Shown here: piece by piece, positions 5,559-62,784 of the stretch
Position numbering within the stretch: the first letter of the stretch is position 1
Layout of the letters: each line of letters opens with the position of its first letter
Origin: a virus
Reading direction: 5' to 3' (one strand)
Virus record (IMG/VR): IMGVR_UViG_3300029910_000005
Location: 61,318-125,317 of that record
DNA length: 64,000 nucleotides
The notes under the pieces: model-generated
What the model was told of the DNA's origin: nothing
Database searches by the model: none
Seen by the model: only the letters and a program-made list of their open reading frames with translations
Translations under genes and position numbers: made by a program

Positions 5559-6011
5559 ATGCCTCGAACCCAACGAGTATCTTGTAGGACGGAGTTTGAG
5601 TATAAACTGGACGATTACTGTGAGCAACTCGACATAAATACTCCTACCAAAAGGTTCAGGGACTTTGCTGATTGTGCGCGTGTACTCTTCAAGTTGCCGG
5701 TCATTGAGCCTGATCGAATCAAGGAGGTGAACCGGATCGTAACGATAGATCATAAACGATATCGTGAAGCTTGTGAGAAGCTTATGCGCGGTGAACGGTG
5801 GAATTGGTATCATTTCACATACAATTTACCTATTTTCTGTCCGACTGCGGCTGATTATAATAGGTTCGGCGCATCTGTTTTTTGGCCCATTGATGGTGAT
5901 CACAGTGTGATCCGACTCATGGTCATCTTCTGCTATCTCAACTATAAACCAAGCAGCGTGTGGAAACTCACCACTGATCTCTGTCGTCATCTCCGCACAT
6001 TTTTCGACTAA
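5559..6011 (+). CDS. Small FWP-motif protein with C-terminal box (150 aa)
   Basis: Starts at ATG 5559 right after a CACATATAC element. It aligns with the 10286-10762 protein and in part with 6013-6378: W-x-W-Y near residue 84, then G-A-S-V-F-W-P at about 108-114 and a helix ending in LRTFF. The C-terminus (IRLMVIFCYLNYKP, then LTTDLCRHLRTFF) fits the hydrophobic helix, spacer, DL-x-R-x-L-R-x-F pattern of the box found at the end of the 17-21 kb proteins. One base separates it from the next gene. Function unknown; a protein-binding adaptor is my inference. Confidence 0.65.
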   Translation: MPRTQRVSCRTEFEYKLDDYCEQLDINTPTKRFRDFADCARVLFKLPVIEPDRIKEVNRIVTIDHKRYREACEKLMRGERWNWYHFTYNLPIFCPTAADYNRFGASVFWPIDGDHSVIRLMVIFCYLNYKPSSVWKLTTDLCRHLRTFFD

Positions 6012-6012
6012 G

Positions 6013-6378
6013 ATGGGGGACTTAGAGAAGGAGAGACAAGAACTGATGAGTTCCCCTCCAAAGCGAGCATGGTATCGTTTGGTGATCGACATGCATCCGG
6101 AAAAACCAGGGTGTGTCGAATACAATGGATTTGAAGCGTCTTTGTTCTGGCCTCATCCGCACGATATGACCCTACAACGTGCGTGGGTTCTGCTGCGATA
6201 TAAGAACTTGTTGCCACCTGATGTATGCATCCTTCTGCGCCCGTTTCTGGTAGGAATTCGGCGTCAGTACTTATATGTGGAATCCAATTCTTCACTCACA
6301 CCCCACTCGCATATCGGGTTGATATGTAGACCAGGTGATCGATTAGCGGAACAAAAATATAAAGACGGCATTACTTAA
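6013..6378 (+). CDS. Small FWP-motif protein, paralogue (121 aa)
   Basis: ATG 6013 follows the stop of the previous gene by one base, so the pair may share a transcript. Residues about 18-80 repeat the core of its neighbour and of 10286-10762: W-Y-R-L-V, then E-A-S-L-F-W-P-H-P, then R-A-W-V-L-L-R-Y-K and LPPDVCILLRPFL. Unlike its relatives it carries a further 40 hydrophilic residues after the box. The N-terminal half of the neighbour is missing here. It overlaps the convergent gene at 6375 by four bases. Confidence 0.65.
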   Translation: MGDLEKERQELMSSPPKRAWYRLVIDMHPEKPGCVEYNGFEASLFWPHPHDMTLQRAWVLLRYKNLLPPDVCILLRPFLVGIRRQYLYVESNSSLTPHSHIGLICRPGDRLAEQKYKDGIT

Positions 6379-7379: not shown

Positions 7380-7464
7380 GGTATTTGTGACCTGTCCCCC
7401 TCTCTCTCTCTGTGGTTCCCACACCTGTCTCCCTCTCTCACAAACCAAACCAAAACCTTAAAAA

Positions 7465-8052: not shown

Positions 8053-8082
8053 ATGCGGTCTTTTGTGCCTAAGATAAACATT

Positions 8083-8158
8083 GTCCACCTACCATTGTGG
8101 TAGCCTATCCTTCCGAAACAGAGATGTTGTTTCACTGCTCACTCTCACATATATACTC
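8083..8158 (+). repeat. Conserved 5' flank, inverted copy of 11607-11682
   Basis: From GTCCACC through TGTGGTAGCCTATCCTTC and GAGATGTTGTTT to CTCACTCTCACATATA, this flank is nearly identical to the reverse complement of 11607-11682. Each copy ends just before a start codon (8172 and 11593), so the pair looks like a duplicated promoter flanking a 3.4 kb block. Confidence 0.7.
8146..8156 (+). promoter_or_regulatory. Promoter-like CTCACATATATAC element
   Basis: Perfect CACATATATAC preceded by CTCACT, 15 bases before ATG 8172. Reference copy of the motif. Confidence 0.55.
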
Positions 8159-8171
8159 TCACTCTACAAAC

Positions 8172-8582
8172 ATGACGTCAAAGACCTTTGCAAGCTTGAA
8201 AGCCGATGCTTACGCACGAGTGAATAACCTTCATCTTACTGGTCCACCTGGTCGTGAGCATCTTCATGTGACAAAGTGTGTTGAAATTGAGGAGGTGTAC
8301 GTGAAAGAATTCCATCAAGATCTGTGGCAGCAACTGGAGCTCGCTAAGCAGCAATATAAGACGCAACAGACCATCTGTGATAACCTAGAGGGCTGTCTGT
8401 GTCAATGGAGGGGTATGGTGAATCCGGCTTTGAAAGAGCCAATCATGGCAATGGAAAGACAATTGAAGGACTCGAAAGATTACTGTAACACATTGAATTT
8501 AACCTTTAATGATTTGCGTGACAAGTATTGGGCAACTAATGATGTGATGTGGACCACTTTTTTTACTGATTTACTTAAGTAA
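8172..8582 (+). CDS. Coiled-coil hypothetical protein (136 aa)
   Basis: ATG 8172 (MTSKTFASLK) follows the CACATATATAC element; the in-frame ATG at 8097 lies upstream of that element and is rejected. Residues 50-120 show heptad-like hydrophobics and many Gln/Lys/Glu (LWQQLELAKQQYKTQQ), consistent with a coiled coil, interrupted by a C-x-x-x-C near residue 76. No catalytic motif. It is flanked by the duplicated promoter segment and precedes the three-member paralogous cluster on the other strand by four bases. Function unknown. Confidence 0.65.
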   Translation: MTSKTFASLKADAYARVNNLHLTGPPGREHLHVTKCVEIEEVYVKEFHQDLWQQLELAKQQYKTQQTICDNLEGCLCQWRGMVNPALKEPIMAMERQLKDSKDYCNTLNLTFNDLRDKYWATNDVMWTTFFTDLLK

Positions 8583-8586
8583 GCAA

Positions 8587-9396
8587 TCATTCTTTCTTTG
8601 CCTCAACAAATGCCACCGTCCAACGACGTTTCATCAGATTCGCTGGTGCTTCTGCGTATTGCACGGTGACAATGACATGGTCTTGATATCGTCTCCACCA
8701 ATTATTTTTCTCTTTCTCGAACTCTGGGAACATCTGAAGGAGTTTCTCCATTTCAGCCCGAAGCAGAGGTTCCAGACGATTAGTGACACCATGAATATGC
8801 ACATCGAAGAGAGGAGTTTGCTGCACCTCGCGCGAACGATCCAGCAGTTGATGGAATGTCTCCTGATAGAATGCATCAACTGGAGCCGAATCATGCAACA
8901 TGAACGTCACCTCTACGGCATCGCCGGTATGATCAACCATACGTCTGATTTCATGGGTATCACCTAAGGCCGTACATAATGATGACAGTATTGATTTACG
9001 CACGTAACACGTCTGCTTCTTATCCGTTGCGTGTCGTTTGATGTAGCCATAGGGATCATCGGTAATGCGACAGAGCTTGATTTTACGCAAATCTGGGTGG
9101 TCCTTAAGATAATGTGGACCCTCAAGAATCCCAAAGAAATCCGGCGTCAAACTCAGGTCGGAAGCGTCCAGGCGTTTGGTGTCCAAGATAAAATCACGTT
9201 GGGATTCTTCACTCGCACGCATCTCTTCGAGCACTCTGGAGAAGCTAATCAGAATCGCTTGGTAATACACTTTAGTCCCCTCATTGGTCGTCATTACCGT
9301 GATTAGGATATCATTTTCAACAAAGACATAACTAACAGGTTCTTTCCCAACGATCACCAACTCGTGTGGTTTACCATCATGAATGTAGCCCGGCAT
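8587..9396 (-). CDS. Three-member paralogous family, member A (269 aa)
   Basis: Starts MPGYIHDGKPHELVIVGK at 9396, four bases after a CACATATA element. It aligns along its length with 9457-10305 and 10793-11593. Shared landmarks are an N-terminal strand pair with D-G-K-x-H-E, an early V-Y-Y followed by a long amphipathic helix, a P-x-x-Y-I-K/F-I segment before a TDKK-type charged stretch, a region ending in M-F-P-E-F-E, and a C-terminal K-R-R-W-T-V-A-F followed by an acidic/basic tail. All three are soluble and similar in length. I do not recognise the family; a tandem amplification specific to this virus is likely. Confidence 0.7.
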   Translation of the reverse strand: MPGYIHDGKPHELVIVGKEPVSYVFVENDILITVMTTNEGTKVYYQAILISFSRVLEEMRASEESQRDFILDTKRLDASDLSLTPDFFGILEGPHYLKDHPDLRKIKLCRITDDPYGYIKRHATDKKQTCYVRKSILSSLCTALGDTHEIRRMVDHTGDAVEVTFMLHDSAPVDAFYQETFHQLLDRSREVQQTPLFDVHIHGVTNRLEPLLRAEMEKLLQMFPEFEKEKNNWWRRYQDHVIVTVQYAEAPANLMKRRWTVAFVEAKKE

Positions 9397-9456: not shown

Positions 9457-10305
9457 TTAGACCGCCTTCTGTTTCTTGTCCCCCTCCTCCTCAGGGATGG
9501 GTTGCGGAACCCAGCGACGTTTCAGGTAGAGGGCAGGAGCGATGACCGTCTTGCATGCATGGAGCATGTAGAGTTCGCTGTTGCCGGGCGCTTGTGACCA
9601 GGACGTCATCTGAAATTGAGGAAACAGGTTGAAAAGTTGCTTGATTTCATCGTAAACGATCGTCTCCGCTTCCCCGACAGGAACTGAACATCCAAGCGAA
9701 GCATTTACGTCAGTCGACCACATTAACAGGTTGCTAAGCACACGATGATATGCAATGTCCACCTGGGACATATCACGCGCAGAGAACTTGATCATACACA
9801 AGCCAGGGTTTCCATTCAATACCTCCGTTGAAGGGGTTTCGATGACATGCGTGGCGTCCAATTCCTGGTGGATTTTCGGCAACAAATCGATTTTCGTGTA
9901 AACACGCCACGTCTCGTCTTCTTTAGCTTTCTTCTTGATATATGCGATAGGATTCTGCTCGATCTTACGCAAAACAACGATCCTCAGCTCCGGAAATCGA
10001 TCCCCTGGAAGAGGAGGAATAATTTCACTGGCAGAGTAGAAAAAATCCGTGCTATGCTCGATCTCTCTCAAGATAGAGCCATCCAGTGCACGGTAAGGAA
10101 CGTAACGGGTTTGAACGTCGGATGCTCGCAACGATTCCATGATCGGTTTGATGTCTCGCACGAAAGACATGTAGTAGACATTGGTACCAGCAGCTGTCAC
10201 GATTAGCTGTAACGCAAGGTCGTCTTTGATGAGCTCCTCGTAGGTTAACTGCTTTCCTGCGATGAAAAATTCATGTTGTTTTCCGTCAAGATTGAATTCC
10301 GGCAT
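9457..10305 (-). CDS. Three-member paralogous family, member B (282 aa)
   Basis: ATG 10305 (MPEFNLDGKQHEFFIAGK) is chosen over 10317 because it aligns with the start of member A. It shares T-N-V-Y-Y, NPIAYIKKKAKEDE, LFPQF and K-R-R-W-V-P with the other members. A longer central insertion (residues about 150-200) sets it apart, and the tail is EEEGDKKQKAV. Its start lies inside the 3' end of 10286-10762, a gene of the FWP type that interrupts the paralogous series. Function unknown. Confidence 0.7.
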   Translation of the reverse strand: MPEFNLDGKQHEFFIAGKQLTYEELIKDDLALQLIVTAAGTNVYYMSFVRDIKPIMESLRASDVQTRYVPYRALDGSILREIEHSTDFFYSASEIIPPLPGDRFPELRIVVLRKIEQNPIAYIKKKAKEDETWRVYTKIDLLPKIHQELDATHVIETPSTEVLNGNPGLCMIKFSARDMSQVDIAYHRVLSNLLMWSTDVNASLGCSVPVGEAETIVYDEIKQLFNLFPQFQMTSWSQAPGNSELYMLHACKTVIAPALYLKRRWVPQPIPEEEGDKKQKAV

Positions 10306-10762
10306 TTTTTGTGGCAACTGTCACCCTACATGCCCCTAAAAAAGGAAGAAGTTGGTGACAGATGTCATATGGATATCCCTTATAACGCAGAATGACCAGG
10401 GCACGAACGATCTCTATATCGTCATAAGGATGGGGCCAGAACACGGATGCTCCATCCTGGGTATAATGCGATGCTATTGGCAGTCGTTGTAGTTGTATGA
10501 CAACTAAATACCATTTCCATTGCGGCAACTGATAGAGATCGTTTACTTGATGGCGGTAGTTAGAATCGGTGTCCTGAAATATCTTAATGGCCATTTGCCA
10601 TTTGGTATCAGATTCATTGTCATCGAAGACTCGAGGTGGTGGGCTGCTTTCTGGAAACAAGGTTCGATATACGTGAGAAACGCATGAGAATTGTTTTTTT
10701 GGATGTTCAATCTTCATTTCTTTACAGAACTTAGAAACACACATTCTCTGGTAACCTGGCAT
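10286..10762 (-). CDS. Small FWP-motif protein with C-terminal box (158 aa)
   Basis: Starts at ATG 10762 (MPGYQRMCVS). It aligns with 5559-6011 over its whole length: an N-terminal helical domain, W-K-W-Y near residue 88, DGASVFWPHPYDD near 108, then VRALVILRYKGYPYDICH and LLPFL. The last elements match the hydrophobic helix plus P-x-D-x-x-x-x-L-x-x-F-L pattern of the C-terminal box group. About 15 residues follow the box. It sits between two members of the three-gene family and overlaps member B by 20 bases. Probably a protein-binding adaptor by analogy; not demonstrated. Confidence 0.65.
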   Translation of the reverse strand: MPGYQRMCVSKFCKEMKIEHPKKQFSCVSHVYRTLFPESSPPPRVFDDNESDTKWQMAIKIFQDTDSNYRHQVNDLYQLPQWKWYLVVIQLQRLPIASHYTQDGASVFWPHPYDDIEIVRALVILRYKGYPYDICHQLLPFLGACRVTVATKNAGIQS

Positions 10763-17429: not shown

Positions 17430-17654
17430 TCAGAGGAATTTTCGCAAACGCCGAAGGAGGTCTATCGGGAGGTACAATGTCTTCGGACGTAAACGAGGGA
17501 TAAAGAGAGGAGAGACTATGATGAGCAGATCTCTCGCATTAATCTCTGATTGGATTATGGTGGCAGTAATGTCGATCCATGGGACATATGAGTATAGTCG
17601 TTCACGTTCATAACGAGCCCCCTCTATCTCCCAATTAATCCATGGAAGGATCAT
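17430..17654 (-). CDS. C-terminal-box protein, cluster I, member 1 (74 aa)
   Basis: Starts MILPWINWEIEGARYERER, almost the same N-terminus as the next gene. The C-terminal 34 residues are the box: hydrophobic helix LLIIVSPLF, I-P-R-L-R-P, then YLPIDLLRRLRKFL as the very end. This layout resembles the SOCS box (L-P-L-P-x-x-L-x-x-Y-L at the C-terminus) and F-box/PRANC motifs (LP-x-E/D-L-x-x-x-L), which recruit Elongin B/C or Skp1-cullin ubiquitin ligases. With only 40 residues before the box, any target-binding part is tiny. Last gene of a five-gene run of the same strand. Confidence 0.65.
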   Translation of the reverse strand: MILPWINWEIEGARYERERLYSYVPWIDITATIIQSEINARDLLIIVSPLFIPRLRPKTLYLPIDLLRRLRKFL

Positions 17655-17655
17655 G

Positions 17656-17889
17656 TCAGAAGAATTTCTGCAAACGTCGCAGGAGGTCTATCGGGAGGTA
17701 CAATGTTTTCGGACGCAATCGAGGGACAAAGAGTGGGGAAATTAGGATGAGAATATGATATGTACGCCAATACTGTTTAACCACATCGAATATACTGCCC
17801 ATTTCCATACGTCGAGTGACCATCGAGTATTCTCGTTCACGCTCATAACGAGCCCCCTCTATCTCCCAATTAAGCCATGGAATGCTCAT
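17656..17889 (-). CDS. C-terminal-box protein, cluster I, member 2 (77 aa)
   Basis: Starts MSIPWLNWEIEGARYERER at 17889 and ends YLPIDLLRRLQKFF; closest relative is member 1. The stretch between (residues 20-42) differs strongly, so the pair shows conserved ends and a variable centre. Only one base separates its stop from the start of member 1, and one base separates it from member 3. No promoter motif fits in these gaps, which points to expression from a shared transcript or to promoters inside coding sequence. Confidence 0.65.
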   Translation of the reverse strand: MSIPWLNWEIEGARYEREREYSMVTRRMEMGSIFDVVKQYWRTYHILILISPLFVPRLRPKTLYLPIDLLRRLQKFF

Positions 17890-17890
17890 G

Positions 17891-18109
17891 CTAGAGGAAC
17901 TTTCGCAAACGTCGCAGGAGATCGATGGGGAGGTACAGTTTAGGAGGGCGTAAACGAGGGATAAAGAGTGGGGAAACTAGGATGAGTATATGCACGATAT
18001 AATCACGACGTGTAGTTAGGCGGCTTGAAACCCAGCGACTAGTAATGATGATACTTCGTTGTTCCCGTCGAGCATGTTCTACAGCCTCATAGAGCTCGGT
18101 GATGGTCAT
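17891..18109 (-). CDS. C-terminal-box protein, cluster I, member 3 (72 aa)
   Basis: Starts MTITELYEAVEHARREQ, resembling member 4 (MSLYEAVERARREHEQ) rather than members 1-2, and ends HILILVSPLFIPRLRP, KLYLPIDLLRRLRKFL. The start overlaps the stop of member 4 by four bases (ATGA type). The N-terminal helix with alternating Glu/Arg is likely the variable interaction part. Same box function inferred as for the rest of the cluster. Confidence 0.65.
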   Translation of the reverse strand: MTITELYEAVEHARREQRSIIITSRWVSSRLTTRRDYIVHILILVSPLFIPRLRPPKLYLPIDLLRRLRKFL

Positions 18110-18342
18110 ACTACGAGGAAACTCTGCAAACGTCGCCAGAGATCGATAGGGAGGTACAGTTTAGGAGGGCGTAAACGAGGGACAATGAGTGGGGAAACTA
18201 GGATGAGAAGATGATATGTGGGTCGATAGAACCAAATTAATCGGGTCATATAGCTTAAATTATTAGGATTAAGGCGATAGTCTGCCAATAGCTGTTGTTC
18301 ATGTTCCCGCCGAGCACGTTCTACAGCTTCATAGAGGCTCAT
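18106..18342 (-). CDS. C-terminal-box protein, cluster I, member 4 (78 aa)
   Basis: ATG 18342 (MSLYEAVERA) is chosen because it aligns with member 3 and overlaps the stop of the RING gene by four bases; the open frame extends to 18516 only as a shadow. Ends LLILVSPLIVPRLRP, LYLPIDLWRRLQSFLVV. The box is nearly unchanged at the DNA level from members 3 and 5 (blocks near 18112-18190 and 18345-18425), which indicates recent duplication or gene conversion. Confidence 0.62.
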   Translation of the reverse strand: MSLYEAVERARREHEQQLLADYRLNPNNLSYMTRLIWFYRPTYHLLILVSPLIVPRLRPPKLYLPIDLWRRLQSFLVV

Positions 18343-18764
18343 ACTGCGAGGAAACGCTGCAATCGACGCCAGAGATCGATGGGGAGGTACAACGTAGGAG
18401 GGCGCAGACGAAGAACAAAGAGGGGAGACACCAATAACATAAGAATTGTGAATGTACGGTAACGATAGGGAGATCGGATGCAACCATATCTCGTAGATTG
18501 TAAGACCGCTGCACATACATGAGGTGTTCCATCGATATGTGTGCGCATAAGACTATCAAAACAATCATCACAGTAACCATGCATTAAACAAAAAGAAAAC
18601 ATTTTCATAGACATCTTCCCCTCAGACCGTACAGGAAAGACTCGAGAACAGATCGTGCATGCAAATTTAGGTACATCTCCCAGCGCTCCGAACGACTCTC
18701 TCGTCACTTGAGGTTGAAATACAGGAATCTCCCTGTACGACTTTGAGAACCGTCGACTGCTCAT
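18339..18764 (-). CDS. RING-like zinc finger fused to the C-terminal box (141 aa)
   Basis: ATG 18764 (MSSRRFSKSY) has the typical CACAAAAAATG leader. Residues about 40-90 hold a Cys/His series FACTICSRVFP, FSFCLMHGYCDDCF, HVCAAV: C-x2-C, then C-x2-H-x2-C-x2-C and a last H-x-C, a RING/zinc-ribbon-like arrangement. The C-terminus is the cluster's box (SPLFVLRLRP, LYLPIDLWRRLQRFLAV). RING fingers bind E2 ubiquitin-conjugating enzymes, so this fusion supports a ubiquitin role for the box family. The canonical eight-ligand RING order cannot be confirmed by eye. The first 98 bases of the gene overlap the end of 18667-19140 in another frame. Confidence 0.62.
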   Translation of the reverse strand: MSSRRFSKSYREIPVFQPQVTRESFGALGDVPKFACTICSRVFPVRSEGKMSMKMFSFCLMHGYCDDCFDSLMRTHIDGTPHVCAAVLQSTRYGCIRSPYRYRTFTILMLLVSPLFVLRLRPPTLYLPIDLWRRLQRFLAV

Positions 18765-19140
18765 TTTTTGTGACCGCCTTCTGGCCTGCGAAGTATGTGT
18801 GAAAAAACCTCGCCATATCCGGTTCGACCTGAGGAGCGACCTGAGGAGGCGGTATGTCCTCTCTTCTCTGCTGTACGATAGCAGCTGGTCGTGGAAAATT
18901 GTCACCAATCCACGCATCGGAGAGGTTTTGTAGGTTGGTGACGACACTCTCGAGGTCTTTCCTGATTCGACGATGGGTACGCTTGGTCATCGTAAAACGC
19001 GTACCATTCGCACTGGGAATCAGTTCATCGTCATCTTCGTGGTCGCTCAACCCATCGTCGAAATTCTCCACGTTCCAGGTGTCCTCATCCTCCTCATAGT
19101 CGCTGCTACTGTCCTCGTGATCGTCACTGTCACTGCTCAT
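18667..19140 (-). CDS. Acidic hypothetical protein (157 aa)
   Basis: ATG 19140 follows a CACAAAC leader. The first 45 residues are highly acidic (SSDSDDHEDSSSDYEEDED), followed by a basic stretch KRTHRRIRKDL and a helix SVVTNLQNLSDAWIGDN. Residues 80-120 are Pro/Gln-rich. The last 33 codons overlap the start of the RING gene in another frame; this tail is unlikely to be functional and may reflect loss of an earlier stop. No known family. Acidic-then-basic composition is seen in nucleic-acid or histone-binding proteins, but that is only a guess. Confidence 0.5.
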   Translation of the reverse strand: MSSDSDDHEDSSSDYEEDEDTWNVENFDDGLSDHEDDDELIPSANGTRFTMTKRTHRRIRKDLESVVTNLQNLSDAWIGDNFPRPAAIVQQRREDIPPPQVAPQVEPDMARFFHTYFAGQKAVTKNEQSTVLKVVQGDSCISTSSDERVVRSAGRCT

Positions 19141-19399
19141 GTTTGTGACGTTTGTTCTCTGCGCGAATCTGTCTGTTCACTATTCGTTTCTTGTCGTTGT
19201 CGTCCCCTAGACAATCGATGTAAAGGCGGTCTAAACCGTACATGCAACGAACAGGGTGTTCCCGTTTGAGTTCTGGAAACGTCTTCTTGATCAACACCAC
19301 CTGGTCCTTGGTAAGGTATTCCATCTTAGGTTGCGGTTTTCGTGTATGTAGCGCTCGCTTCCAGGGCTTCTCTCCCTCGTCGATTCGAATCCGGAACAT
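19130..19399 (-). CDS. Small basic hypothetical protein (89 aa)
   Basis: ATG 19399 (MFRIRIDEGE). Basic, with KRALHTRKPQPK and a C-terminal KKRIVNRQIRAENKRHKHEQ tail. The central part (VVLIKKTFPELKREHPV) is helical. Overlaps the acidic gene downstream by 11 bases. It interrupts the box-protein run between clusters I and II and lacks a box itself. Unknown function. Confidence 0.5.
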   Translation of the reverse strand: MFRIRIDEGEKPWKRALHTRKPQPKMEYLTKDQVVLIKKTFPELKREHPVRCMYGLDRLYIDCLGDDNDKKRIVNRQIRAENKRHKHEQ

Positions 19400-19401
19400 T
19401 T

Positions 19402-19635
19402 TCAGCCGTGATAATTTATGAAGGTCCTCAGTTTCTTCCAGAGATCGGCAGGCAAATACACCCCGTTACGCAACCGTTTGACGTACAAGGGAGAGACTAA
19501 GGCCATCAAGATATCGATAAACCGTTCGGACGCATGTTTATGTTCTAAATATCTCGTCAATGCAGGAACATGCCAACCGTATGCCACCAGATAGGGACCG
19601 TATTCTTTGTACATTGGGAGGTTAGGTTGCGGCAT
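19402..19635 (-). CDS. C-terminal-box protein between clusters (77 aa)
   Basis: Starts MPQPNLPMYKEYGPYL and ends DILMALVSPLYVKRLRN, YLPADLWKKLRTFINYHG. The box is intermediate between cluster I (SPLF) and cluster II (LPADLFRKL). The N-terminal 40 residues are aromatic-rich and unique. The start overlaps the previous gene's stop by 14 bases. Same inferred adaptor role. Confidence 0.62.
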   Translation of the reverse strand: MPQPNLPMYKEYGPYLVAYGWHVPALTRYLEHKHASERFIDILMALVSPLYVKRLRNGVYLPADLWKKLRTFINYHG

Positions 19636-19969
19636 TTCCCCACGAACAGGTGAGAAAGAGCATCAGTTTACGGAAGAGATCGATCGGGAGATAGGTTCCA
19701 GTGTGTAAACGAGGAAAGTGAAGAGGGGCGACAAGGTATACCATGGACCACGTGAGCTTATAGGTGGCTATCTGTAGATCGCCCCAATAATGGTAGTGCT
19801 GCCATGCGGTGTTCCATACGATGTCTGTTATCCCATAATGTATCTTATACCATTCGATGAAATTATTAATTGCAGGCAACTCAACAGGCGGACAAGTGGA
19901 TGGCAGGCATCCATTGTCGCGTATATACCACCAATAGTGGCACCTTGCTGCCCAAGGCGTCTTAGTCAT
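19622..19969 (-). CDS. C-terminal-box protein, cluster II, member 1 (115 aa)
   Basis: Starts MTKTPWAARCHYWWYIRDN. Followed by CPPVELPAI, a variable aromatic centre (residues 38-65) and the box MVYLVAPLHFPRLHTGTYLP, IDLFRKLMLFLTCSW. Ends GNAAT, where the other three end GND. One of four head-to-tail paralogues with a repeat period of about 320-340 bases. Confidence 0.65.
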   Translation of the reverse strand: MTKTPWAARCHYWWYIRDNGCLPSTCPPVELPAINNFIEWYKIHYGITDIVWNTAWQHYHYWGDLQIATYKLTWSMVYLVAPLHFPRLHTGTYLPIDLFRKLMLFLTCSWGNAAT

Positions 19970-20288
19970 TTCCCCAGGAGCAGGTGAGAAAGAGCATCAA
20001 TTTACGGAAGAGATCGGCGGGGAGATAGGTTCCAGTGTGTAAACGAGGACAGTGAAGAGGGGCGACAAGGCATACCAGAGACCTCGTGAGCTTATAGGTG
20101 GCTGTATCCAACTCACGCCAATACTTGTACACATCCCAAATAAACATTCCGTTATAATACGTATACCACCATTCACTGAAATTAGCAATCACGGGTAATT
20201 CGACAGGTGGACGGGTAGATGGGACGCACTTATGTTCGTGTATGTAAGCCGCATAGTGACACCTTGCTGCCCAAGGAAGCTCAGTCAT
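19962..20288 (-). CDS. C-terminal-box protein, cluster II, member 2 (108 aa)
   Basis: Starts MTELPWAARCHYAAYIHEHK and ends PADLFRKLMLFLTCSWGND. Identical in the first 14 residues of the mature pattern (RCHYAAYIHEHKCVPS) to member 3, with differences concentrated at residues 38-60. The 3' 170 bases are nearly identical to those of members 3 and 4. Overlaps member 1 by eight bases. Confidence 0.65.
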   Translation of the reverse strand: MTELPWAARCHYAAYIHEHKCVPSTRPPVELPVIANFSEWWYTYYNGMFIWDVYKYWRELDTATYKLTRSLVCLVAPLHCPRLHTGTYLPADLFRKLMLFLTCSWGND

Positions 20289-20619
20289 TTCCCCATGAAC
20301 AGGTGAGAAAGAGCATCAGTTTGCGGAAGAGATCAGCGGGGAGATAGGTTCCAATGTGTAAACGAGGAGAGTAGAGAGGGGCGACAAGGCATACCATGGA
20401 CCTCGTGAGCTTATAGGTGACTGTATCCAACCTACACCAATAATGATACAGTCCTATAATAAACTTGCCGCTATAATACATGTCCCGCCATTCATTGAAA
20501 GTAGCGATCACGGGCAATTCGACAGGTGGACGGGCAGATGGGACGCACTTATGTTCGTGTATGTAAGCCGCATAGTGACACCTTGCCATCCAAGGCGTCA
20601 TCCAAGGAAGCTCAGTCAT
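20281..20619 (-). CDS. C-terminal-box protein, cluster II, member 3 (112 aa)
   Basis: Starts MTELPWMTPWMARCHYAAY; an internal short duplication (PWMTPWMA) lengthens its N-terminus relative to member 2, visible in the DNA as a repeated CATCCAAGG near 20586-20606. Box: SMVCLVAPLYSPRL, YLPADLFRKLMLFL. Overlaps member 2 by eight bases. Confidence 0.65.
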   Translation of the reverse strand: MTELPWMTPWMARCHYAAYIHEHKCVPSARPPVELPVIATFNEWRDMYYSGKFIIGLYHYWCRLDTVTYKLTRSMVCLVAPLYSPRLHIGTYLPADLFRKLMLFLTCSWGND

Positions 20620-20944
20620 TTCCCCAGGAGCAGGTGAGAAAGAGCATCAGTTTGCGGAAGAGATCGGCGGGGAGATAGGTTCCAGTGTGTAAACGAGGAG
20701 AGTAGAGAGGGGCGACAAGGCATACCAGGGATCCAGTCAGTTTGTCGGTAGCTATCTGTAGATCGCGCCAATAGACATAATACTCCCACCAATCGTAACC
20801 ATCAGCGTCTATAGTAGCTAACCATGGCGTGAATAAATGAAGTACCGGTAACTCGATAGGCGGACAGATGGATAGGGGTACACGTCGATGTACGCGTAAA
20901 TAATATGCATAGTTATGCTTTGCTGTCCAAGGTGTTAGAGACAT
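20612..20944 (-). CDS. C-terminal-box protein, cluster II, member 4, first gene of the run (110 aa)
   Basis: Starts MSLTPWTAKHNYAYYLRVHR at 20944; its N-terminus is the most divergent of the four, while the last 45 residues are nearly identical. It is the 5'-most gene of the twelve minus-strand genes and lies 21 bases from the divergent gene 20966. The gap contains a small hairpin (CTCTGT, five-base loop, ACAGAG; 20948-20964). If the run is polycistronic, this gap should hold its promoter. Confidence 0.65.
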   Translation of the reverse strand: MSLTPWTAKHNYAYYLRVHRRVPLSICPPIELPVLHLFTPWLATIDADGYDWWEYYVYWRDLQIATDKLTGSLVCLVAPLYSPRLHTGTYLPADLFRKLMLFLTCSWGND

Positions 20945-21983: not shown

Positions 21984-24900
21984 TTACGTGTAATAAGCAA
22001 GAAAACGAGTCGGATCACTCAACGAATATACCAACACTTCACGTATAGAAATTCCACTCGGTAGTGCAAAAAGCGTGATCTGCGATACTCCAGCAGTAGT
22101 AGCACATTGATATTCTTCACCATTAGAGACACATGTAGTTGACGACCCTGGCGCAGTCACCACCACTCCTAAGGTCCCTGTGCCATTATATACCCTAACA
22201 CTGCATCCTGTCCCCCCTATGATCGGATTGCGTAGCGTGAGCACCTTTGATCCAGTAAGATTATACGCCGTCTCGGTCGCTCCATCGGTCATATTGGTCC
22301 CAGAGACATTATACACCAGATTGTTATACTGGATAGCGAAGCAGGTACCTAAATAGGAGCTGTTATGGATGAGGAGGCAAGGGTTGGTAGGTTGCGCTGT
22401 TCCACATGGAGATGATCCTGAACAGGGTACCACCACGGTATCTCGTTGAGTCCAACGGAAATCGCCAGTAGGAGTTCGTGCTAGATCGACGAATGAGGAG
22501 GCATTGGGTTGTGCTATCTGATAGTAGCTCAGAGCCTCCGTTCCAGTCAACCAGGAAGCCAGCGCCGTCGATTCTCCAGCACAGAGTTCGGTTGTCCCTG
22601 GGAGATCGAGGACAGTATCCTCCCCTGAGAGGTCATTCACCACGTTTGTTTCCGGTTTGATGTAGGTACTCTCTCCTAGCGTGCTCTCTGTCTCATAGAC
22701 GAACGGAAAGTCGAAACGGGTGATGGGGTTAGGTCTGGTTCGGAGAATGAGTCCTGCATTCTCTGTGGCACATCCCCACCGTTTGCCGTCAGAGGACAAC
22801 CAGCTACCATCGGCTTGTAGAGGCACGATATTACCGTTATAGTCAACGGCGTTATATCCAGGCTTCGGGAACCCACCACATACCTCTTTCTGGCCTTTTA
22901 AGTACGAAATAATTGCCAGTTCATCACATGCTGTACCTCCGTAAGAGGGGTCTTTACAGTAGCATTGTCCTGGAGCTAATGTCTGTCCATCAGGGGTGGT
23001 GAAGTAGTCGAAGAGTGGGACATTAGTAGGATCAGCTACGTCGATAGAGGAGGAAGGTTCGTGTATGGTCCATTGGTTAGGGGTCTGACAAGCCGTTATC
23101 GTGGCATTATCAGAAGCCAGCACAGTATACAGCTTGATCGTGTCACCACGTACCATACCGTACATATCAAACCCCAAACTCTGATAGTAAGCGGTAGTGT
23201 TTAGGTACATGGAGAGATCGATGAGGTAGGTAACAATCGTCGAACTGGTTCCAGAGAAGTTACCAGAGAAGTTACCTACCACTAACTTATCGTAAGGTAC
23301 CGTGGTATAGGTAGGAGAGAGAGAGGAAACCCATACGGCGACGTAACAAGCAGGATTGGAGCAGGAGAATGAGCCGTAGAGACGAGTGGTGTTGATCATA
23401 CTGTACTGGGCGTTGTTCTTGCCGGTGTTCTGCCAGGAGGAGAATGATCGGGTGATACGTAGCCAGACGTAATCATTAGGGACAATCTCAAGCATGACGA
23501 ACGCTTTCGTGGCAGTCGACGGAAACCCATACGAATCAGCTACCCCATAGGTGGAAGGATCGATGACAACTCCACACCTGGAGATTGTCCATGGTATGCT
23601 GGAGTTCACCGCTTGAAGATTGAGGGGGTACTGATCGGCGGGGATCTCGATGAGAGGGAGTTGAGGAGCATCTGGGTCACAATACTGAGCATCGAGGGCT
23701 CTTCTCTCGCGACAGATACCAGTTTTGCTCGAGCATTGGACACCGCAATCGACAGGCCAGATCCGAAAGGGGTCGAAACAGATCCATTGTCCTGGATTCG
23801 CGGTAGCTCCAGGAGAAAGATAACCAGGGCGATCACAATACCCACCTGCCTGGAATGCAGCTTGCACCTGTGGAAAGGGCCAGACGAGAGACTCTCCTGA
23901 ATAGGTCTGTAGATAGGTCAATTCGCGTTGATAATCGACCCTTCCTTGAACTAAAAAAGCATCAAGCTGGCCTGTATCGTAGGCTAGTTTGGCAGCGAAG
24001 AGTTCCTCATTGTTGGCTTGGACGGTATCAGGATAGCGTAAGAAGACAGTGGTTGGAGCATCAGGGGTACCGCCATTTCCACGCGCACTGTCTCCGCAGA
24101 TATCTCCCATACGCCCATTCTGACAGACATATTTGGTATAGTCCTGGAGACAGAGAGCGGTGTAGGCGGGATTCTGGCAAACCACGGTAGTTATTTGGTA
24201 GGGAACCCCACTGGTGAGAGGATTATTGGCTATCACGGCGGTACAATCATCAAGGAAGAAGCGGGTGGTGTATTGGGAAAGGATCAGGTTTGCGATGAGT
24301 CGAGCATATACACGAGTATAGTTAAATTGGAGACTGGCAAGGGCAACAAACTGCTGGCTCGTGGAGTTATTGGGAGCTGCCCAACTGACATACACCTGAG
24401 GAGCTACCTTGTTGATAGCGAGACTATCTTCGGTTTGCTCCATCTGGGAGACGACGTATTCGAAGACATTGGGACTGGCAGGGTTATACCATCGTGCGTC
24501 AAATTGCCAGATACCAGGAGGTTGCGCAACGATGCAAGAAGGACAGACAAGAACAGGACGCCCTAGAGATGCGCATGGAATAAACTGGTTGGGGAGAGCT
24601 GTGCCTGGACCGCCATTGAGCAAGGTTTGGACATCCGTCATCGAGAGCAGAGTCATGCTAGCGGCAGGAATCACTGGAACAGATGTATGGTAATTAACAG
24701 ATGAAGAAGTGGTGATACGACCAGAATAGGCATATGGGTTGGAGGGGTAATTCATAGGGTTCGATTGTGACGCTAGTCCACTGATTCCCTGCAAGATGCG
24801 AATATCCACACGCGAACACATGTAGGGATTGGAGGATAGCGTAAGCGTCTGCTCATCCCCTGAGTTGAGCGGAGGAGCAGTGAATTGCGCCCTAGCATTA

Positions 24901-27900
24901 ACCTCCATCTGGTATGCGGTGAACAGAGGATAGATATTCCACGATGTAAATTCTGCACCATAGACACCGTTTGCCCAATAGTTCAGATCGTATGTACTCT
25001 GAACAACCTGACCTGGAAAGAGATATTCTCCTCCCTGTCCAGGCGTGAGATTGGATACCGTACAGGTTCCATCTACTTGGGGAATACAGATACATCCTCC
25101 ATAATCATTGACAGCGATACATTGATTGGTACATCCATACACCCCTGCATATCCTCCCCACGCCTGGTTTACTGCCGATATTCCATAGGTGGTTTCTTCC
25201 TGGAAAGAGCGCACACTCTCACCGCCACCGCCACCGCGTACCATCGTGAGTATACATGGTCCCTCGACGGCAACAGAGAGGATATGGGATCCAAACTGTC
25301 CTAACATCTGGGTACCTAATCCGAAACAACTGGTAGCTCCAGGAGTCGCACATTCATCCCAAGTACCACCATACCCGAAGGTCGTGAATAGAGATGCATA
25401 GCCATCTGCCGGGGAGACGACATAGGTTTTCTTCGCACCATATGGACCGCCTGCTTGAAAGTTTCGGCCACAGAGGTAGGTATTAAAGAGGGAAATCCTA
25501 CAGGTCTGTGGGTTCACCCAGAAGGTATTGACAGCACCTTTCGTGATGACAGTAGTTTGATAGGCAGGATTACCGACATATTTGGTCTGACTGTAGATAA
25601 GTCCTGGCATTGTGGCTGCTCCGATGGTTATGGGAGGACTGTATTGATTAGAGGCTACGACCATCACACCGAATGCGTTTTCAATCATAGCTGCTGGAAA
25701 GGTGTTCGTGTTCCATACGGTTATCGGCGAAAACCCAGCTTGAGGACCAGCGGTTGCCCAGGTGTTTTGCAACTGAGAAGACGCGCTGCAACCGTAAGGA
25801 GAACCACCACATGGTGAATACGATAACCCCGTGAACACTTGACGTTGATCTTCGGTGAATAGAATGTTAAGGGCAGAAGACCAAGACATGGCTACTCCTG
25901 ATGTCCAATCCGTATTCCACAGTATTGAACCATCTACGTCAGGCGTGGAGACATAATCTGATCGATCCGAGGGAGATAGTAGGGAATATGGTTCGATACC
26001 ATTAGAGGAGATGACACAACCCCATTGCGAACACGAGGGGACAAAGAAATCAGACATTGCTGGATTCGGCATCTCATTCCTATTTCTTGCCCCTATAAGA
26101 CACGCCTGAGTACATCTTGTCTGTCCTCCAGGACAACATGCTTCACCAAAATACTGAGCATAACTGCCAGCAGGATCGAGTCCACGATCCAACGCTAACC
26201 ACGCCCCAACATTCTGACATGCAGCAGCTGCCTGTGCGTAGTTCAGATTGGTTACCGTAATGGGAGGTTGACCAGTGATATTAGGGTAGATTTGGTATGG
26301 AAAGTACCCACCATCCAGACCGAGCAGATTAGGGTTCTGTAGATAGAGCATATCGATACATTGTCCTGTCCCTCCTGCATGGGGATTCACCTTGTTGCCT
26401 TGTGCATACTGGATGCGTCTCAGTAGACCAGGAGGCATAGGGAGGATGAAGGGGAAGTACCCAAACACAACGAATTCCTGTATCAGAAACGGTCCATTGG
26501 ATGACAGTAGGACACTGGTAACTGGTCCACTTGCTTCAGAGATTGGCACACAACATGTAGAAGTCATTGGACATCCAGGATAAGTTATCGTAGAAGCAGG
26601 AGTTAGAATTTCAGCTCCTGGAATACCAGAACAGACCGATTCCATCCAGTCAATGCAAGTCTCTGATCCTAGACCTGCATAACATGCGTCCGTATAGGTA
26701 ACCCCGAGTTGCGTGAAATCATATGGACGCCATAGTTGCTGACAACCAACAAATAACCAGGTCCATTGTCCTGAATAGTCATCGAGATCCCCAAGCTGAG
26801 CAACCTCACCACAAAGAGATTCATTGGCATCGTTCAGGAAGAGGATATTTACCGTACTCTGCGTGTTAAGAGATCGGCCGAAGATATGGAAATGGGTCAC
26901 ATAGGTTGCATTCGGGAACGTGAAGTTGAGGGTAGAGTTGATCTGTATATAATCCAGACCTAGTTGAGGGGGTTGGGAAAAACCGGTCTGGAAGTATCTC
27001 CATTTGAAGTCAGTTAGTATTGGAGGTATACCGGTGGTATAGGCGGTTAAGTCAGCGGGACTAGAAAACGATTTCAGGTACGGTCCTACGATGGTTTCTC
27101 GGCCCACATAGGGGAGCATACAGACTGGACTAGCAGGGTTTTCGTGAGGATAGACACAGATATCCCCCTCGATGGTGATGAGATCGTTGGTCAGTTGCTG
27201 GATCATCTGCACCCACGCCGATTGCTGTAGAGCCAGGAACCGAGCAGGTTGAGAAACGAGTAACTTGATGATGTCAGCCGCATTCGGATTCAGGCCTAAG
27301 CCTAACATAAGCATTGGGAGTTGATCCTCCCAGGATGGTTCAATGGTAATTTGAATCCAATTGGCAGAGTTGGTAGTGGCCTTGTTGCATGGATTACCGT
27401 TGATTCCCATCGGGGTCTGAATGTACTGGAAACACCCAACTCCTGTAGCATCCGGACCATATCCTGCACCAGTTACGAGATCGACTTCACATAAACATGA
27501 ACCATCAGCGAGAGCTTGTCCGTGATTATTACAGGCGTAAACCATCGGTGTGCGTTCCGAACCAGTACAATCCTGGGGGAGAACGCCAGTAGGGACTTTG
27601 GCGATCAAGCAAAGTACCATCGGGCATCTTGAAAGGCGTGAATAGCCCTCACAGAAGTTATTCCAGAGTACCTGATTAACGGGATCAGGACCGATAGGAG
27701 CGCCACACGAACCACCAATCCAAAGACCAGGAAGAGTCACGAACTCGTTATCCTGATAGGGCAACTTGGTGACCGGATCCAGTTGCGAGTATTGCAATTG
27801 TCGAGGATCATCTTGACAATAATACTGCTGACAATACTCTCCACCCCATCCATTAGGGACTAATTCAGTGGACTGGAGATGGTTGGAGATATTTCCACCG

Positions 27901-30900
27901 TCTTGTAAGGATGCCAGATCGGTCGCCAAGTCCCCACATCGACAGTATACTTCATCACGATAATCTCTCTTAGCTGGATATCCATTACCAGCACAAGCAA
28001 GAGGGAGGGTTACATCTCCTCTCTGGCATGCCAGTAGATCTACACCGCACATACCGTAGTAATTCGACGTGGTTGGACAGGCAATATGGGCATCTCGAAA
28101 CAGATTTGCAACTGTTCCTGGGAAACAATTGTAAGGGATCGTCTCGCATGCTCCATCCGTGCAATTTTGTGCTGAACAATGCTCTAAATAGGGGGTGGAA
28201 GGTTCGCCCCATGCAAGAGGATTACCTGCAGTGTAGGGTACAGTCACAAGATTTGTCCATTCTTGAGTATACGCGAAGGTATCCTGGCCTGAGAAACAAT
28301 CGCAGGTGCCATCTACGCGACATTTGCCCCCTGCACCACACGGAGGGGAGATAAAAGCTACATTGTAGCAGTCTTTCTCGGACGCCTGACAATGACCATC
28401 AGGGCAGCGGAAGGGGAATTCGTTGTATTGGGTTACTTTGGTCCAGGGAATTGTGTAGGAGGTACCGTTAAAGTAGGTGAAGGTTTTCCAGGCGGTGACT
28501 TGGGGGAGATTGTTGGGGTTTCGCGTAAGTACACAATCTTCCAGTTCGAGTTTCTCACCGTAGGGACCCTGTACAGCATAGGGGCAATTGGAAGCCATCA
28601 TCTTACCTCCAAGATCGTAGTAGCAATGCAGAGCAGCCACTCCCCATGGAGCAAACTCGAACGAGACGCGATTCCATTGCACCTCACCAGCAACTGGTGG
28701 AGACCCATCTTCATTGATCACTTCGATCTCTGAATCCATATAACATCCTCTCACAGGTGCAACGTAGCTCCTCCCCGGAAGGATCTTCATCGGACGTGAA
28801 GTGCCACATGAACACCATAGATGAGGATCGATATTGAAAGTATAAGGATCACCTGCCATACAATAATCGAGACTACAATCGACCCCGCCATAACCTACTG
28901 CGCACGCACATTTGTACTTGTTACTCTGGGTAGAGATCTGTGTACATCCATCCCCTGGATTGTTGTAGGTCACTGGTGGACACTGAGAGGGATAGAGAAC
29001 ACATTCACCAGTTTGACAGCGCACTAGCCCATCACAATCAAGACATTCACCACGAACTACTTGTGTCACAGCTCGTGTGAACTGCAGACTTGGCACGAGA
29101 ACAGTCACCAGTCCACTTGCGAGGTATTCGTCGATAAGGGCAGAATTCTCAACGACATGGTCGGATTTGTTGGTATATTCTTCGAGGATGAACTGCTCAT
29201 AGGCTGTCAGATTACATGTGCTACCTGGGAGTAGAGGTATAGTACGTAAACTAAAACCACACTTCCCACATTGGGTCCCAGTTGTACAAGCAATACCAAG
29301 TTGTACCAACGATAAGTTCTGCGTGAGGGTGTAGTTAGGGTATCCCTGCACTCCTAATGAGAAATTGAATTGTTCATTGCTGGGATCTACCACACGATAA
29401 ATGTATGAAAGTGGCGCGGTTAAGTTGGCATTAGAGGGATAAATGGAAACTCTCCCTGTCCAGGTGAGATTGAACAAGGAAATAGGGGGAGAAGCGGTCC
29501 CAGTCACCCACCATACGAGAAGAGTGGGGGTATTCTCATATTGTATAGTGTTCGGAGGAGCAGGAGGATTTGGATCGTAAATAGTACAATTGAGGGAAGC
29601 TAATCGACAATATAATAAAGTTGTATCGATACCACCTGCTCCAGAAGGCAATATGCCCATCTTGAAAGGGTTCATCCCTAGTCCGTTCACGAGATACATC
29701 TCGTCAACACAAGCGTCTCCAGCAGCTGGCGTGAGACCATTGCCTACAGTGCAAGTTTCCGTACAGATACAAGGAACGGTGGAGTTCAGGTTACGGGAGA
29801 GGATCGATTGGAGAGCGTAGGACGTTATCGAGGTGAAAGAGGGACTGACGTTCAGTTCGATGGCCTCATTGTCACATTGTTGGTTGGTGAACACGAGAAA
29901 TTCACGTACTCCTAAGACATACAGTGACACAAGACGGACACCAATATGGCGGTTAAGACTGTATAGGGATAGATAATGGTCCTCACTACCAGAGTAGACG
30001 GCGGTTTTGATTTGGCCTAGTGTTGTCCAGTGGATACCATCGTCAGAAACTTGCACATCGACGAAAACTGGTATGCTGAAATTACCAGCCCAGACCCCTG
30101 CAGTTTCAAAGACGACGTACGCTCCAACGAGAATTTCTGGTTCGGTGAAGAGATAGGTGAGGGTCTTATGGGGGTCGAGGTCGCTGGAAATCCAGTAGGT
30201 GAGATCGTTCCAGAGGACGTTGTCTTTCTGTCCGGGGTTGGAGGAGACGAGGATCTGGGAGGGGATGATGGGGATACCGCCAGGAGCAAAGACGGGAGCG
30301 ATTGTCTGGTTCGGACCTAAGCCTTCGATCCACCATTGATCGAAGGTGACTGATTGGTTAAGGGCATAGATTGGTTTGAAGGTTTGGCGAGGGAGGACGC
30401 AATCAGAGTCGATCTCGAAGGTCTCTACGGCTTGTGAGAACTCGGAGGAGGAAGCCCTTATCGTGAGATTAGTATCACAGGAGGATAGATTATAGACCCT
30501 CACTTCCATGAGATACGCAGACCATGGCGGTCTCTCAAAGTAGGCGGTTCCATCCTCGTCAGGCTCGACGAACCAGGTGAGATTGGAAGGCGGAGCAGCA
30601 CCAGCTTGGATGAAAAAGCAGACAGATTCGAGACTGTAACGGTATGCATCGAGATAAGCTTCCACCTCTGCCATACCAGGGTAATGCCCGAAACAGTTAC
30701 ATCCTCCTCCAGCAGGACAGAGACATTGGTAGACTGGGATGAACTGGTCTCCACAGTTGCAGGTCATGTCACGTTGGGCATCGGTGATGGTGCAACTACA
30801 GGTGACAGAGACGTTCGGGAAAGATTGAGGGGAGAGGAGAGCAGGCTTGCCGTTAGGGCAGATTCCAGGGAAGACACGGAACGATTCATCGGTAAGCCCA

Positions 30901-41650: not shown

Positions 41651-42343
41651 ATGATGAGCAAGAAAGAAGCTTCTGTGCAGTTGATTGCAGCATTAGGTGC
41701 CAAAAAATTCAACACTGCATTCGCTATACTTCGATCAGGAAGTCTGTCACCGAGAGAACAATTTGACCTTTGTGTTCGCTGTGCTCTTTTCGGTAATCCT
41801 GGTATAAGTACTTCTATCTTGGAATACGTCTTTATTCCTGCAACTGTTGATTGGTACAACCTAGCGGGGGATATCAATGTGTTGATACAGGCAGCAAGGT
41901 TGAGACGGTTGAGATTGGCCAAAATCCTCCTGGAAAACGGTGCCGATCCTAATGTTCGAAATCGGGTTGGAAAGACCGCATTGCATCTTACTCGATCTTT
42001 AGAAATGGTAAAACTATTCGTCGAAGCAGGTTACAGTATCCGCCATTCAGCCTCTCATAAAGCTCATCGGTTGCGTTCCCCAATGTACTATCATTTGACG
42101 AGAAATAACCGTCTACCCATCATTGCCTATCTCATGAGCCAAGGCGAATCAGGGTATATATATGTAAAACTACAATCTGATGATATATTACCATGTTACA
42201 TCAATTTTCTTGTGTATGCGTCTATTATCCCGATTCTATTATCGGCTCGTGAGATTCCAAGGGTTGGTCATCAAGCTCCCATCCAGCTCCTACCCACTGA
42301 TCTTGTCCGCCTTCTCCGCACATATTTAGTTGGCAAAAGATGA
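41651..42343 (+). CDS. Ankyrin protein ending in the C-terminal box (230 aa)
   Basis: ATG 41651 (MMSKKEASVQ) follows a TACATATACAC element. Ankyrin-like helices cover about residues 12-185, with the clear repeats AKILLENGADPNVRNRVGKT and MVKLFVEAGYSIR, then LPIIAYLMSQGES. The protein ends IIPILLSAREIPRVGHQAPI, QLLPTDLVRLLRTYLVGKR, i.e. hydrophobic helix, I-P-R, spacer, LP-x-DL-x-R-L-L-R-x-Y-L. Ankyrin repeats with a C-terminal box is the architecture of ASB (SOCS-box) proteins and of poxvirus ANK/PRANC proteins, which select targets for ubiquitination. It overlaps the next gene by four bases. Confidence 0.75.
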   Translation: MMSKKEASVQLIAALGAKKFNTAFAILRSGSLSPREQFDLCVRCALFGNPGISTSILEYVFIPATVDWYNLAGDINVLIQAARLRRLRLAKILLENGADPNVRNRVGKTALHLTRSLEMVKLFVEAGYSIRHSASHKAHRLRSPMYYHLTRNNRLPIIAYLMSQGESGYIYVKLQSDDILPCYINFLVYASIIPILLSAREIPRVGHQAPIQLLPTDLVRLLRTYLVGKR

Positions 42344-62556: not shown

Positions 62557-62784
62557 ATGGCACAAACAATGACCCCCCGTACCCTTGCCTTCCGAACCCC
62601 TGAGGTAGAATCGCTACCGTTGCTGCAGACGCAGCAACAGGAGAGGAAACTGGTTGCTGTCGTTGTTACTCCTGTTCGTTTTGCACTAGGAGCGGTTCTT
62701 CGAGGTCAATGGGTGTACAAATGGGAGGTCAATGATAGAAAGTTGCCAGTGGAGCTCGCACGACGAGTATGTGCCTATCTATGA
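62557..62784 (+). CDS. Small protein ending in an LP-x-EL box (75 aa)
   Basis: ATG 62557 (MAQTMTPRTL) is preferred to 62536. The C-terminus reads VRFALGAVLRGQWVYKWEV, then RKLPVELARRVCAYL as the very end. The LP-x-E-L-x-R-R-V-x-x-Y-L ending fits the C-terminal box of the 17-21 kb cluster and looks close to an F-box core. Overlaps the convergent gene by six bases. Small, but the position of the box makes it a likely family member. Confidence 0.55.
   Translation: MAQTMTPRTLAFRTPEVESLPLLQTQQQERKLVAVVVTPVRFALGAVLRGQWVYKWEVNDRKLPVELARRVCAYL

What the first reader, a model, noticed from the sequence alone, without database searches (positions are those of the whole stretch)
17430..20944. A large family of small proteins sharing a C-terminal box that resembles ubiquitin-ligase adaptor motifs
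Ten genes here end in a hydrophobic helix, then P-R-L, a spacer and LP-x-DL-x-R-x-L-x-x-F-L at the last residues. The same or a weaker form closes or nearly closes proteins at 2712-3710, 5559-6011, 6013-6378, 10286-10762, 41651-42343 and 62557-62784, so about 15 copies in 64 kb. The N-termini differ (ankyrin, RING-like, FWP-type, unknown). A constant C-terminal box behind variable target-binding parts is the layout of SOCS-box (ASB), F-box and PRANC proteins. I infer a virus-specific set of ubiquitin-ligase adaptors; which ligase (Elongin-cullin or Skp1-cullin) is open.
Basis: partly seen in the sequence, partly recalled or inferred. Interest (0 to 1): 0.82.

Follow-up and report, generated by a model that had tools for sequence, protein, structure and literature searches.

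The report
Viral one-helix F-box adaptor family
A giant-virus DNA fragment carries at least 28 genes whose proteins end in the same short tag, which looks like the first helix of the 'F-box' that plugs proteins into the cell's ubiquitin (protein-destruction) machinery, and the virus also encodes Skp1, the socket for that tag, right beside one cluster of them.

Summary
All ten genes at 17430-20944 end in one shared box. The 189-kb contig holds 29 copies in 28 genes, in four clusters plus one single gene; profile searching stops there. Of these genes, 14 are ankyrin proteins. Different N-termini carry the same box.

The evidence favours Skp1-Cul1 over Elongin. The box LPxDLxRxLxxFL has exactly the register of F-box helix 1: the strict pattern fits 25 of 29 boxes, against 0.22 in shuffles. 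A profile comparison beats all 200 column-shuffled controls for F-box, but not for SOCS. A virus-encoded SKP1 gene (yeast Skp1, E 1.7e-26) directly follows the ankyrin cluster. A probable 55-bp intron interrupts its 3' end.

No Pfam F-box, PRANC or SOCS model matches, because only one helix is present, so I do not file it as a canonical F-box or PRANC family. It works like poxvirus ANK/F-box and chlorovirus ANK-Skp1 proteins, which are known. New here: the one-helix box, its spread onto tiny non-ankyrin proteins, and the linked Skp1. Binding is inferred, not shown.

The parts
20612..20944 (-). box protein, 110 aa, N-terminus unknown; box 20636-20746
   Evidence: ORF; box alignment A2/A10
20281..20619 (-). 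box protein, 112 aa; box 20305-20415; starts inside the stop of the upstream gene (8-nt overlap)
19962..20288 (-). box protein, 108 aa; box 19986-20096; 8-nt overlap
19622..19969 (-). box protein, 115 aa; box 19652-19759; 8-nt overlap
19402..19635 (-). box protein, 77 aa; box 19417-19527; 14-nt overlap
18339..18917 (-). box protein, 192 aa, with a weak RING-like Cys/His region; box 18348-18464
   Evidence: (zf-RING_2 E 0.51, below cut-off)
18106..18342 (-). box protein, 78 aa from the Met at 18342 (the ORF list gives the longer 18106-18516); box 18115-18231
17891..18109 (-). box protein, 72 aa; box 17894-18010
17656..17889 (-). box protein, 77 aa; box 17659-17775
17430..17654 (-). box protein, 74 aa; box 17433-17549
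41651..42343 (+). ankyrin protein, 230 aa, with C-terminal box 42206-42328 (LPTDLVRLLRTYL)
   Evidence: Ank_2 E 6e-7; box E 2.2e-13 when left out of the model
62743..62781 (+). probable helix-only box LPVELARRVCAYL, the last 13 residues of ORF 62557-62784
   Evidence: HMM E 0.07; strict F-box helix pattern
10337..10375 (-). possible diverged box YPYDICHQLLPFL in FWP-type ORF 10286-10762
   Evidence: pattern only
6211..6249 (+). possible diverged box LPPDVCILLRPFL in FWP-type ORF 6013-6378
   Evidence: pattern only, 42 residues from the C-terminus
5967..6005 (+). weak, proline-less form LTTDLCRHLRTFF in FWP-type ORF 5559-6011
   Evidence: relaxed pattern by eye; HMM E 5.6

Best explanation
The box is a minimal, C-terminal F-box-like motif: a short hydrophobic helix, a proline-rich turn (SPRxxPR) and one amphipathic helix LPx[DE]LxRxLxxFL equivalent to F-box helix 1. 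It is proposed to dock into Skp1, either the virus's own Skp1 or the host's, and so onto the host Cul1-Rbx1 ligase. The variable N-termini (ankyrin repeats in 14 of the 28 genes, short unknown domains in the rest) would pick targets for ubiquitination. The 72-78 aa members may instead occupy Skp1 as competitors. Shown by sequence: the shared box, its F-box-helix register, modular N-termini and a linked viral SKP1 gene. Inferred: Skp1 binding, ligase assembly and target degradation.
For: 29 boxes in 28 ORFs, search converged. The box is conserved while N-termini are unrelated. Strict F-box-helix-1 pattern 25/29, against a mean of 0.22 and a maximum of 3 in shuffles. The pattern sits in C-terminal stretches 26 times in 106 ORFs, against 4 times in 24,883 aa elsewhere. 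hhalign box vs cellular F-box aligns LP on LP and stops at the end of helix 1 (P 0.004); score 15.3, column-shuffle null mean 7.3, max 11.8, 0 of 200 reach it. The F-box reference profile recovers about 50 F-box chains from the PDB. Viral SKP1 at L057:6347 onward (G000:C1:39346 onward) directly follows the ankyrin-box cluster: Pfam Skp1 1.7e-12, Skp1_POZ 7.8e-11, yeast Skp1 E 1.7e-26 after splicing. Precedents: poxvirus F-boxes are C-terminal and truncated, and CP77 binds Skp1 with only the first helix (PMC4353913); chlorovirus ankyrin proteins bind a virus-encoded Skp1 through a C-terminal motif (PMC7019647).
Against: No Pfam F-box, F-box-like or PRANC model matches any box, and the box profile finds nothing in the PDB. 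hhalign probability is only 8%: one 13-residue helix holds little information. The AlphaFold model of the box is low-confidence (pLDDT about 55-60). F-box helices 2 and 3 are absent. No complex could be modelled. Only one of the four clusters lies next to SKP1.
Confidence: 0.72

Rival explanations
1. The box is an Elongin-BC box plus Cul2 box, as in poxvirus ANK/BC proteins: the hydrophobic helix is the BC box and LPxDLxRxL the Cul2 box.
For: Same ankyrin-plus-C-terminal layout and a viral precedent (PMC6232478). The Cul2-box consensus (phi-P-x2-phi-x3-phi, from my own knowledge) is identical to the loose F-box consensus, which 28 of 29 boxes fit.
Against: Strict BC-box in only 5 of 29 against 1.8 by chance; even a loose form 16 against 9.7. 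Prolines (SPRxxPR) fall where the BC helix should continue. The virus encodes Skp1; the PDB search with it lists only Skp1 chains, no Elongin C.
Confidence: 0.1
2. The box is a SOCS box (BC box + Cul5 box LPxP).
For: Ankyrin plus C-terminal box resembles ASB proteins; both contain LP near the end.
Against: Cul5 box 0 of 29; SOCS profile score within the shuffled null (16 of 200 reach it); no SOCS_box hit in the contig.
Confidence: 0.03
3. The box binds Skp1 but the proteins act as decoys that block host SCF ligases rather than as substrate receptors.
For: Five members are only 72-78 aa with about 40 residues before the box, little room for a target-binding domain; many copies would favour titration.
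Against: Fourteen box genes carry ankyrin repeats, a typical target-binding module; a virus that supplies its own Skp1 seems to want the complex to form.
Confidence: 0.25
4. The box is an unrelated paralogous C-terminal helical module (dimerisation, packaging or localisation) that only resembles F-box helix 1.
For: Many boxes are recent tandem paralogues; no Pfam or PDB match; low-confidence structure.
Against: Exact register across diverged clusters, shuffled controls, ankyrin layout and adjacent SKP1.
Confidence: 0.15

Closest known systems
Chlorovirus ankyrin proteins A682L/A607R with virus-encoded Skp1 A039L (PBCV-1)
   Same: Ankyrin repeats, a C-terminal F-box-like Skp1-binding motif and a viral Skp1 in one genome (PMC7019647).
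   Different: Two such ankyrin proteins are named in PBCV-1, against at least 28 box genes on this one contig; half of the genes here are not ankyrin proteins; SKP1 sits beside a cluster. The original chlorovirus paper was not held, so motif sequences were not compared.
Poxvirus ANK/F-box (PRANC, PF09372) proteins
   Same: Ankyrin N-terminus, truncated F-box at the C-terminus, large tandem families; CP77 keeps only helix 1 (PMC4353913).
   Different: No PRANC profile match; the usual poxvirus F-box keeps two helices; the poxvirus reviews read here describe use of the host's Skp1, not a viral one; the upstream SPRxxPR turn is specific to this family.
Poxvirus ANK/BC proteins (Cul2)
   Same: Ankyrin plus short C-terminal cullin box (PMC6232478).
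   Different: BC-box consensus not met in most boxes.
Giant-virus N-terminal F-box/ankyrin proteins of Acanthamoeba viruses
   Same: Expanded F-box and ankyrin families in giant viruses (PMC5995976).
   Different: There the F-box is N-terminal, with ankyrins after it (PMC4353913); here it is C-terminal and one helix long.

Membership tests
F-box (PF00646) | Matches the F-box profile | tested here: not met
   No match at E <= 10 in the contig, none in single-box scans
F-box (PF00646) | Helix 1 with LPxE-phi-x3-phi-x3-phi register | tested here: met
   25/29 strict, 29/29 with the proline relaxed; null 0.22 and 1.27; hhalign 0/200 shuffles
F-box (PF00646) | Helices 2 and 3 follow helix 1 | tested here: not met
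   Most boxes end 0-12 residues after helix 1
F-box (PF00646) | Binds Skp1 | not testable with these tools
   No complex prediction available; viral SKP1 present
PRANC (PF09372) | Matches the PRANC profile | tested here: not met
   No match at E <= 10
PRANC (PF09372) | Ankyrin repeats followed by a C-terminal truncated F-box | tested here: met
   14 ankyrin ORFs ending in the box
SOCS box (PF07525) | BC box plus Cul5 box LPxP | tested here: not met
   Cul5 box 0/29, BC box 5/29; no profile match; shuffled control not beaten
ANK/BC (Elongin BC-Cul2) | BC box [TSP]-L-x3-[CSA]-x3-phi | tested here: not met
   5/29 against 1.8 expected
Chlorovirus-type ANK + viral Skp1 system | Virus-encoded Skp1 in the same genome | tested here: met
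   Pfam Skp1 1.7e-12 / Skp1_POZ 7.8e-11; PDB 1.7e-26
Chlorovirus-type ANK + viral Skp1 system | C-terminal motif homologous to that of A682L | not tested
   Noel et al. 2014 not held; no chlorovirus sequence compared

The most novel reading that the evidence does not exclude
The virus carries a largely self-supplied SCF front end: its own Skp1 plus at least 28 adaptors whose whole Skp1-binding module is one turn and one helix. This would be the smallest F-box used as a portable tag across ankyrin and non-ankyrin proteins, with the tiny members acting as Skp1 plugs or modulators.
Probability: 0.45. Interest if true: 0.75.

Novelty: new variant of a known kind. Interest (0 to 1): 0.58.

Why it matters
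If true, a virus of unknown host devotes a large part of a 189-kb region to redirecting protein destruction, and shows how little of an F-box is needed. A co-encoded Skp1 and 29 natural box variants give a ready set for testing minimal Skp1 recognition and for asking whether viral adaptors prefer viral over host Skp1, as reported for chloroviruses. The probable intron in SKP1 also suggests the virus (or its source) relies on the host spliceosome.

Tried and rejected

A viral SKP1 scan found one other viral contig (L059), whose 17 listed neighbouring ORFs (80 aa and longer) show no obvious ankyrin or box gene on reading the list.

First reading that viral Skp1 is truncated and matched to a truncated F-box: dropped, because splicing a 55-bp GTAAGT...CTAAC...CAG intron restores the conserved C-terminus.

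Hidden introns as the reason for weak boxes in the window: strict intron pattern 0, shuffled mean 1.5.

The hydrophobic stretch as a membrane anchor: rejected by eye, only about 10-12 residues, followed by charged or proline residues.

Foldseek with the ankyrin-box model gives ankyrin-type matches only, none below E 0.001. AlphaFold of the short protein: pLDDT 59, not interpretable.

Full report
What is there. The window is part of a 189,317-bp IMG/VR virus record, G000:C1:61318-125317. Ten minus-strand ORFs at 17430-20944 all carry one C-terminal box. The consensus is a hydrophobic helix, S/A-P-L-x-x-P-R-L, a spacer of 4-6 residues, then Y-L-P-x-D-L-x-R-x-L-x-x-F-L. Eleven columns are invariant.

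The family is larger than the window. A ten-box profile already pulled in C-termini at the left end of the contig. Reading that stretch (L024) showed six tandem ankyrin proteins and two unknown proteins of 329-343 aa, all with the box. A second-round profile (A6) found eight further boxes at C1:34335-39311 and one at C1:168969; a second at C1:169585 was seen on reading that stretch. The final profile (A10, 29 rows) recovers exactly 29 and nothing more at E <= 10. The tally is 28 ORFs: 14 with ankyrin repeats (6 + 7 + window 41651), ten short proteins (one weakly RING-like), and four with unknown N-termini. One ORF (L057:4155-5654) is a fused tandem with two ankyrin-box units.

It is more than paralogous noise. 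Leaving out each whole cluster from the model still recovers most members: ankyrin cluster 3 at E 2e-9 to 2e-5, the ten-gene cluster at 1e-4 to 0.07, window 41651 at 2e-13. The weakest is one of the two genes near C1:169 kb, at 0.17. Among 12 representatives, boxes are alike (z >= 4) in 39 of 66 pairs and N-termini in 2 of 66.

41651-42343 is firm. 62557-62784 is plausible (HMM E 0.07; the strict helix pattern is its last 13 residues). 10286-10762 and 6013-6378 fit the helix pattern only, 5559-6011 only a relaxed form, and 2712-3710 has no statistical support.

Which box is it? The core L-P-x-[DE]-phi-x3-phi-x3-phi is in the exact register of F-box helix 1 (for example SKP2 LPDELLLGIFSCL). The strict form fits 25 of 29 boxes against 0.22 in composition-preserving shuffles. 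The BC box fits 5 (1.8 expected) and the Cul5 box 0. Note that the loose form phi-P-x2-phi-x3-phi, given for poxvirus F-boxes in PMC6232478, is also, from my own knowledge, the Cul2-box consensus, so it alone does not discriminate. Over 106 gene-like ORFs the strict pattern occurs 26 times in C-terminal stretches and 4 times in the other 24,883 residues. Profile-profile comparison with 11 cellular F-boxes aligns LP to LP and ends with helix 1 (P 0.004, probability 8%). With columns shuffled, 0 of 200 reach the observed score; against SOCS boxes 16 of 200 do. The SOCS set was not checked.

The partner gene. Immediately after ankyrin-box cluster 3 lies a SKP1 gene (L057:6347 onward). Pfam Skp1 E 1.7e-12, Skp1_POZ 7.8e-11; PDB Skp1s E 1e-23, no Elongin C. 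Its first reading frame stops just before the conserved last helix. A 55-bp segment, GTAAGT...AACTAAC...CAACAG (L057:6803-6857), removed in phase, restores ...TPEEEKLVRDANPWIFE. The match then runs to the terminal NxW of plant and yeast Skp1 and rises, for a plant Skp1, from 82.7 to 96.3 bits. I take this as a spliceosomal intron (inference from sequence). SKP1 is the only copy in the contig. Its upstream sequence (TCACAAACATA) is of the same kind as that before other genes of this contig.

How it most likely works. The box docks into Skp1, hence Cul1-Rbx1, and the N-terminus selects a target. A single helix can suffice: poxvirus CP77 binds Skp1 with an F-box reduced to its first helix, and most F-box contacts come from helix 1 and the loop before it (PMC4353913). 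A viral Skp1 partnered with ankyrin proteins through a C-terminal motif is known in chloroviruses (PMC7019647). Steps shown: box, register, modularity, linked SKP1. Steps inferred: binding, ligase assembly, degradation. The short 72-78 aa proteins may instead be Skp1 competitors.

Membership. No F-box, PRANC or SOCS profile matches, so I do not call it a member of those families. It works like ANK/F-box proteins. It differs by the one-helix box, by the upstream SPRxxPR turn, by its use on many non-ankyrin proteins, and by the number of genes with a linked viral SKP1. I rate it a new variant of a known kind.

Limits. The virus is unassigned: no major capsid, B-family polymerase or VLTF3 match in the fragment, so viral status rests on the IMG/VR record, dense coding and the shared upstream motif. 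The box is low-confidence in the AlphaFold model (pLDDT about 55-60, helix at 203-212). No complex could be modelled. No relative with the box was found elsewhere, so conservation across viruses is untested.

Noticed in passing
L057:6803-6857 (G000:C1:39802-39856), outside the window: Probable 55-bp spliceosomal intron in the viral SKP1 gene; removing it in phase restores the conserved Skp1 C-terminus.
   Followed up: yes
window 17430-20944 (-): The ten box genes are packed operon-like: 8-nt stop/start overlaps at 20612-20619, 20281-20288 and 19962-19969, 14 nt at 19622-19635, 4 nt at 18339-18342 and 18106-18109, 1-nt gaps at 17890 and 17655. This suggests polycistronic mRNA with reinitiation, unusual for a virus of eukaryotes.
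   Followed up: partly
upstream of many ATGs in window, L024, L057: Promoter-like CACATAT(A) motif in the 64 nt before ATG in 16 of 86 gene-like ORFs, 0.95 expected.
   Followed up: partly
L059 (IMGVR_UViG_3300036979_000424) 7866-8459: Another viral contig encoding a Skp1 homologue (34% identity in the match), no ankyrin or box neighbours seen.
   Followed up: partly
window 21984-33239 (-): Single 3751-aa Cys-rich, EGF-like protein with an N-terminal hydrophobic segment: candidate giant surface protein.
   Followed up: no
L024:9410-15700 (-) and 5826-8681 (-): 2096-aa and 951-aa proteins with PSTSKPSTSP-type linkers and repeated beta-propeller-like units (by eye).
   Followed up: no
window 33866-34972 (+): Strong ankyrin protein (Ank_2 7e-55) whose C-terminal region holds only a faint upstream half of the box (HCLVALLTPLSHPKK, E 0.63): possible decayed box.
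   Followed up: no
window 34986-36272 (-): Weak PARP catalytic-domain similarity (E 0.0097, below cut-off).
   Followed up: no
window 5559-6011, 6013-6378, 10286-10762: Diverged family sharing an FWP motif, with helix-like C-terminal segments resembling the box.
   Followed up: partly
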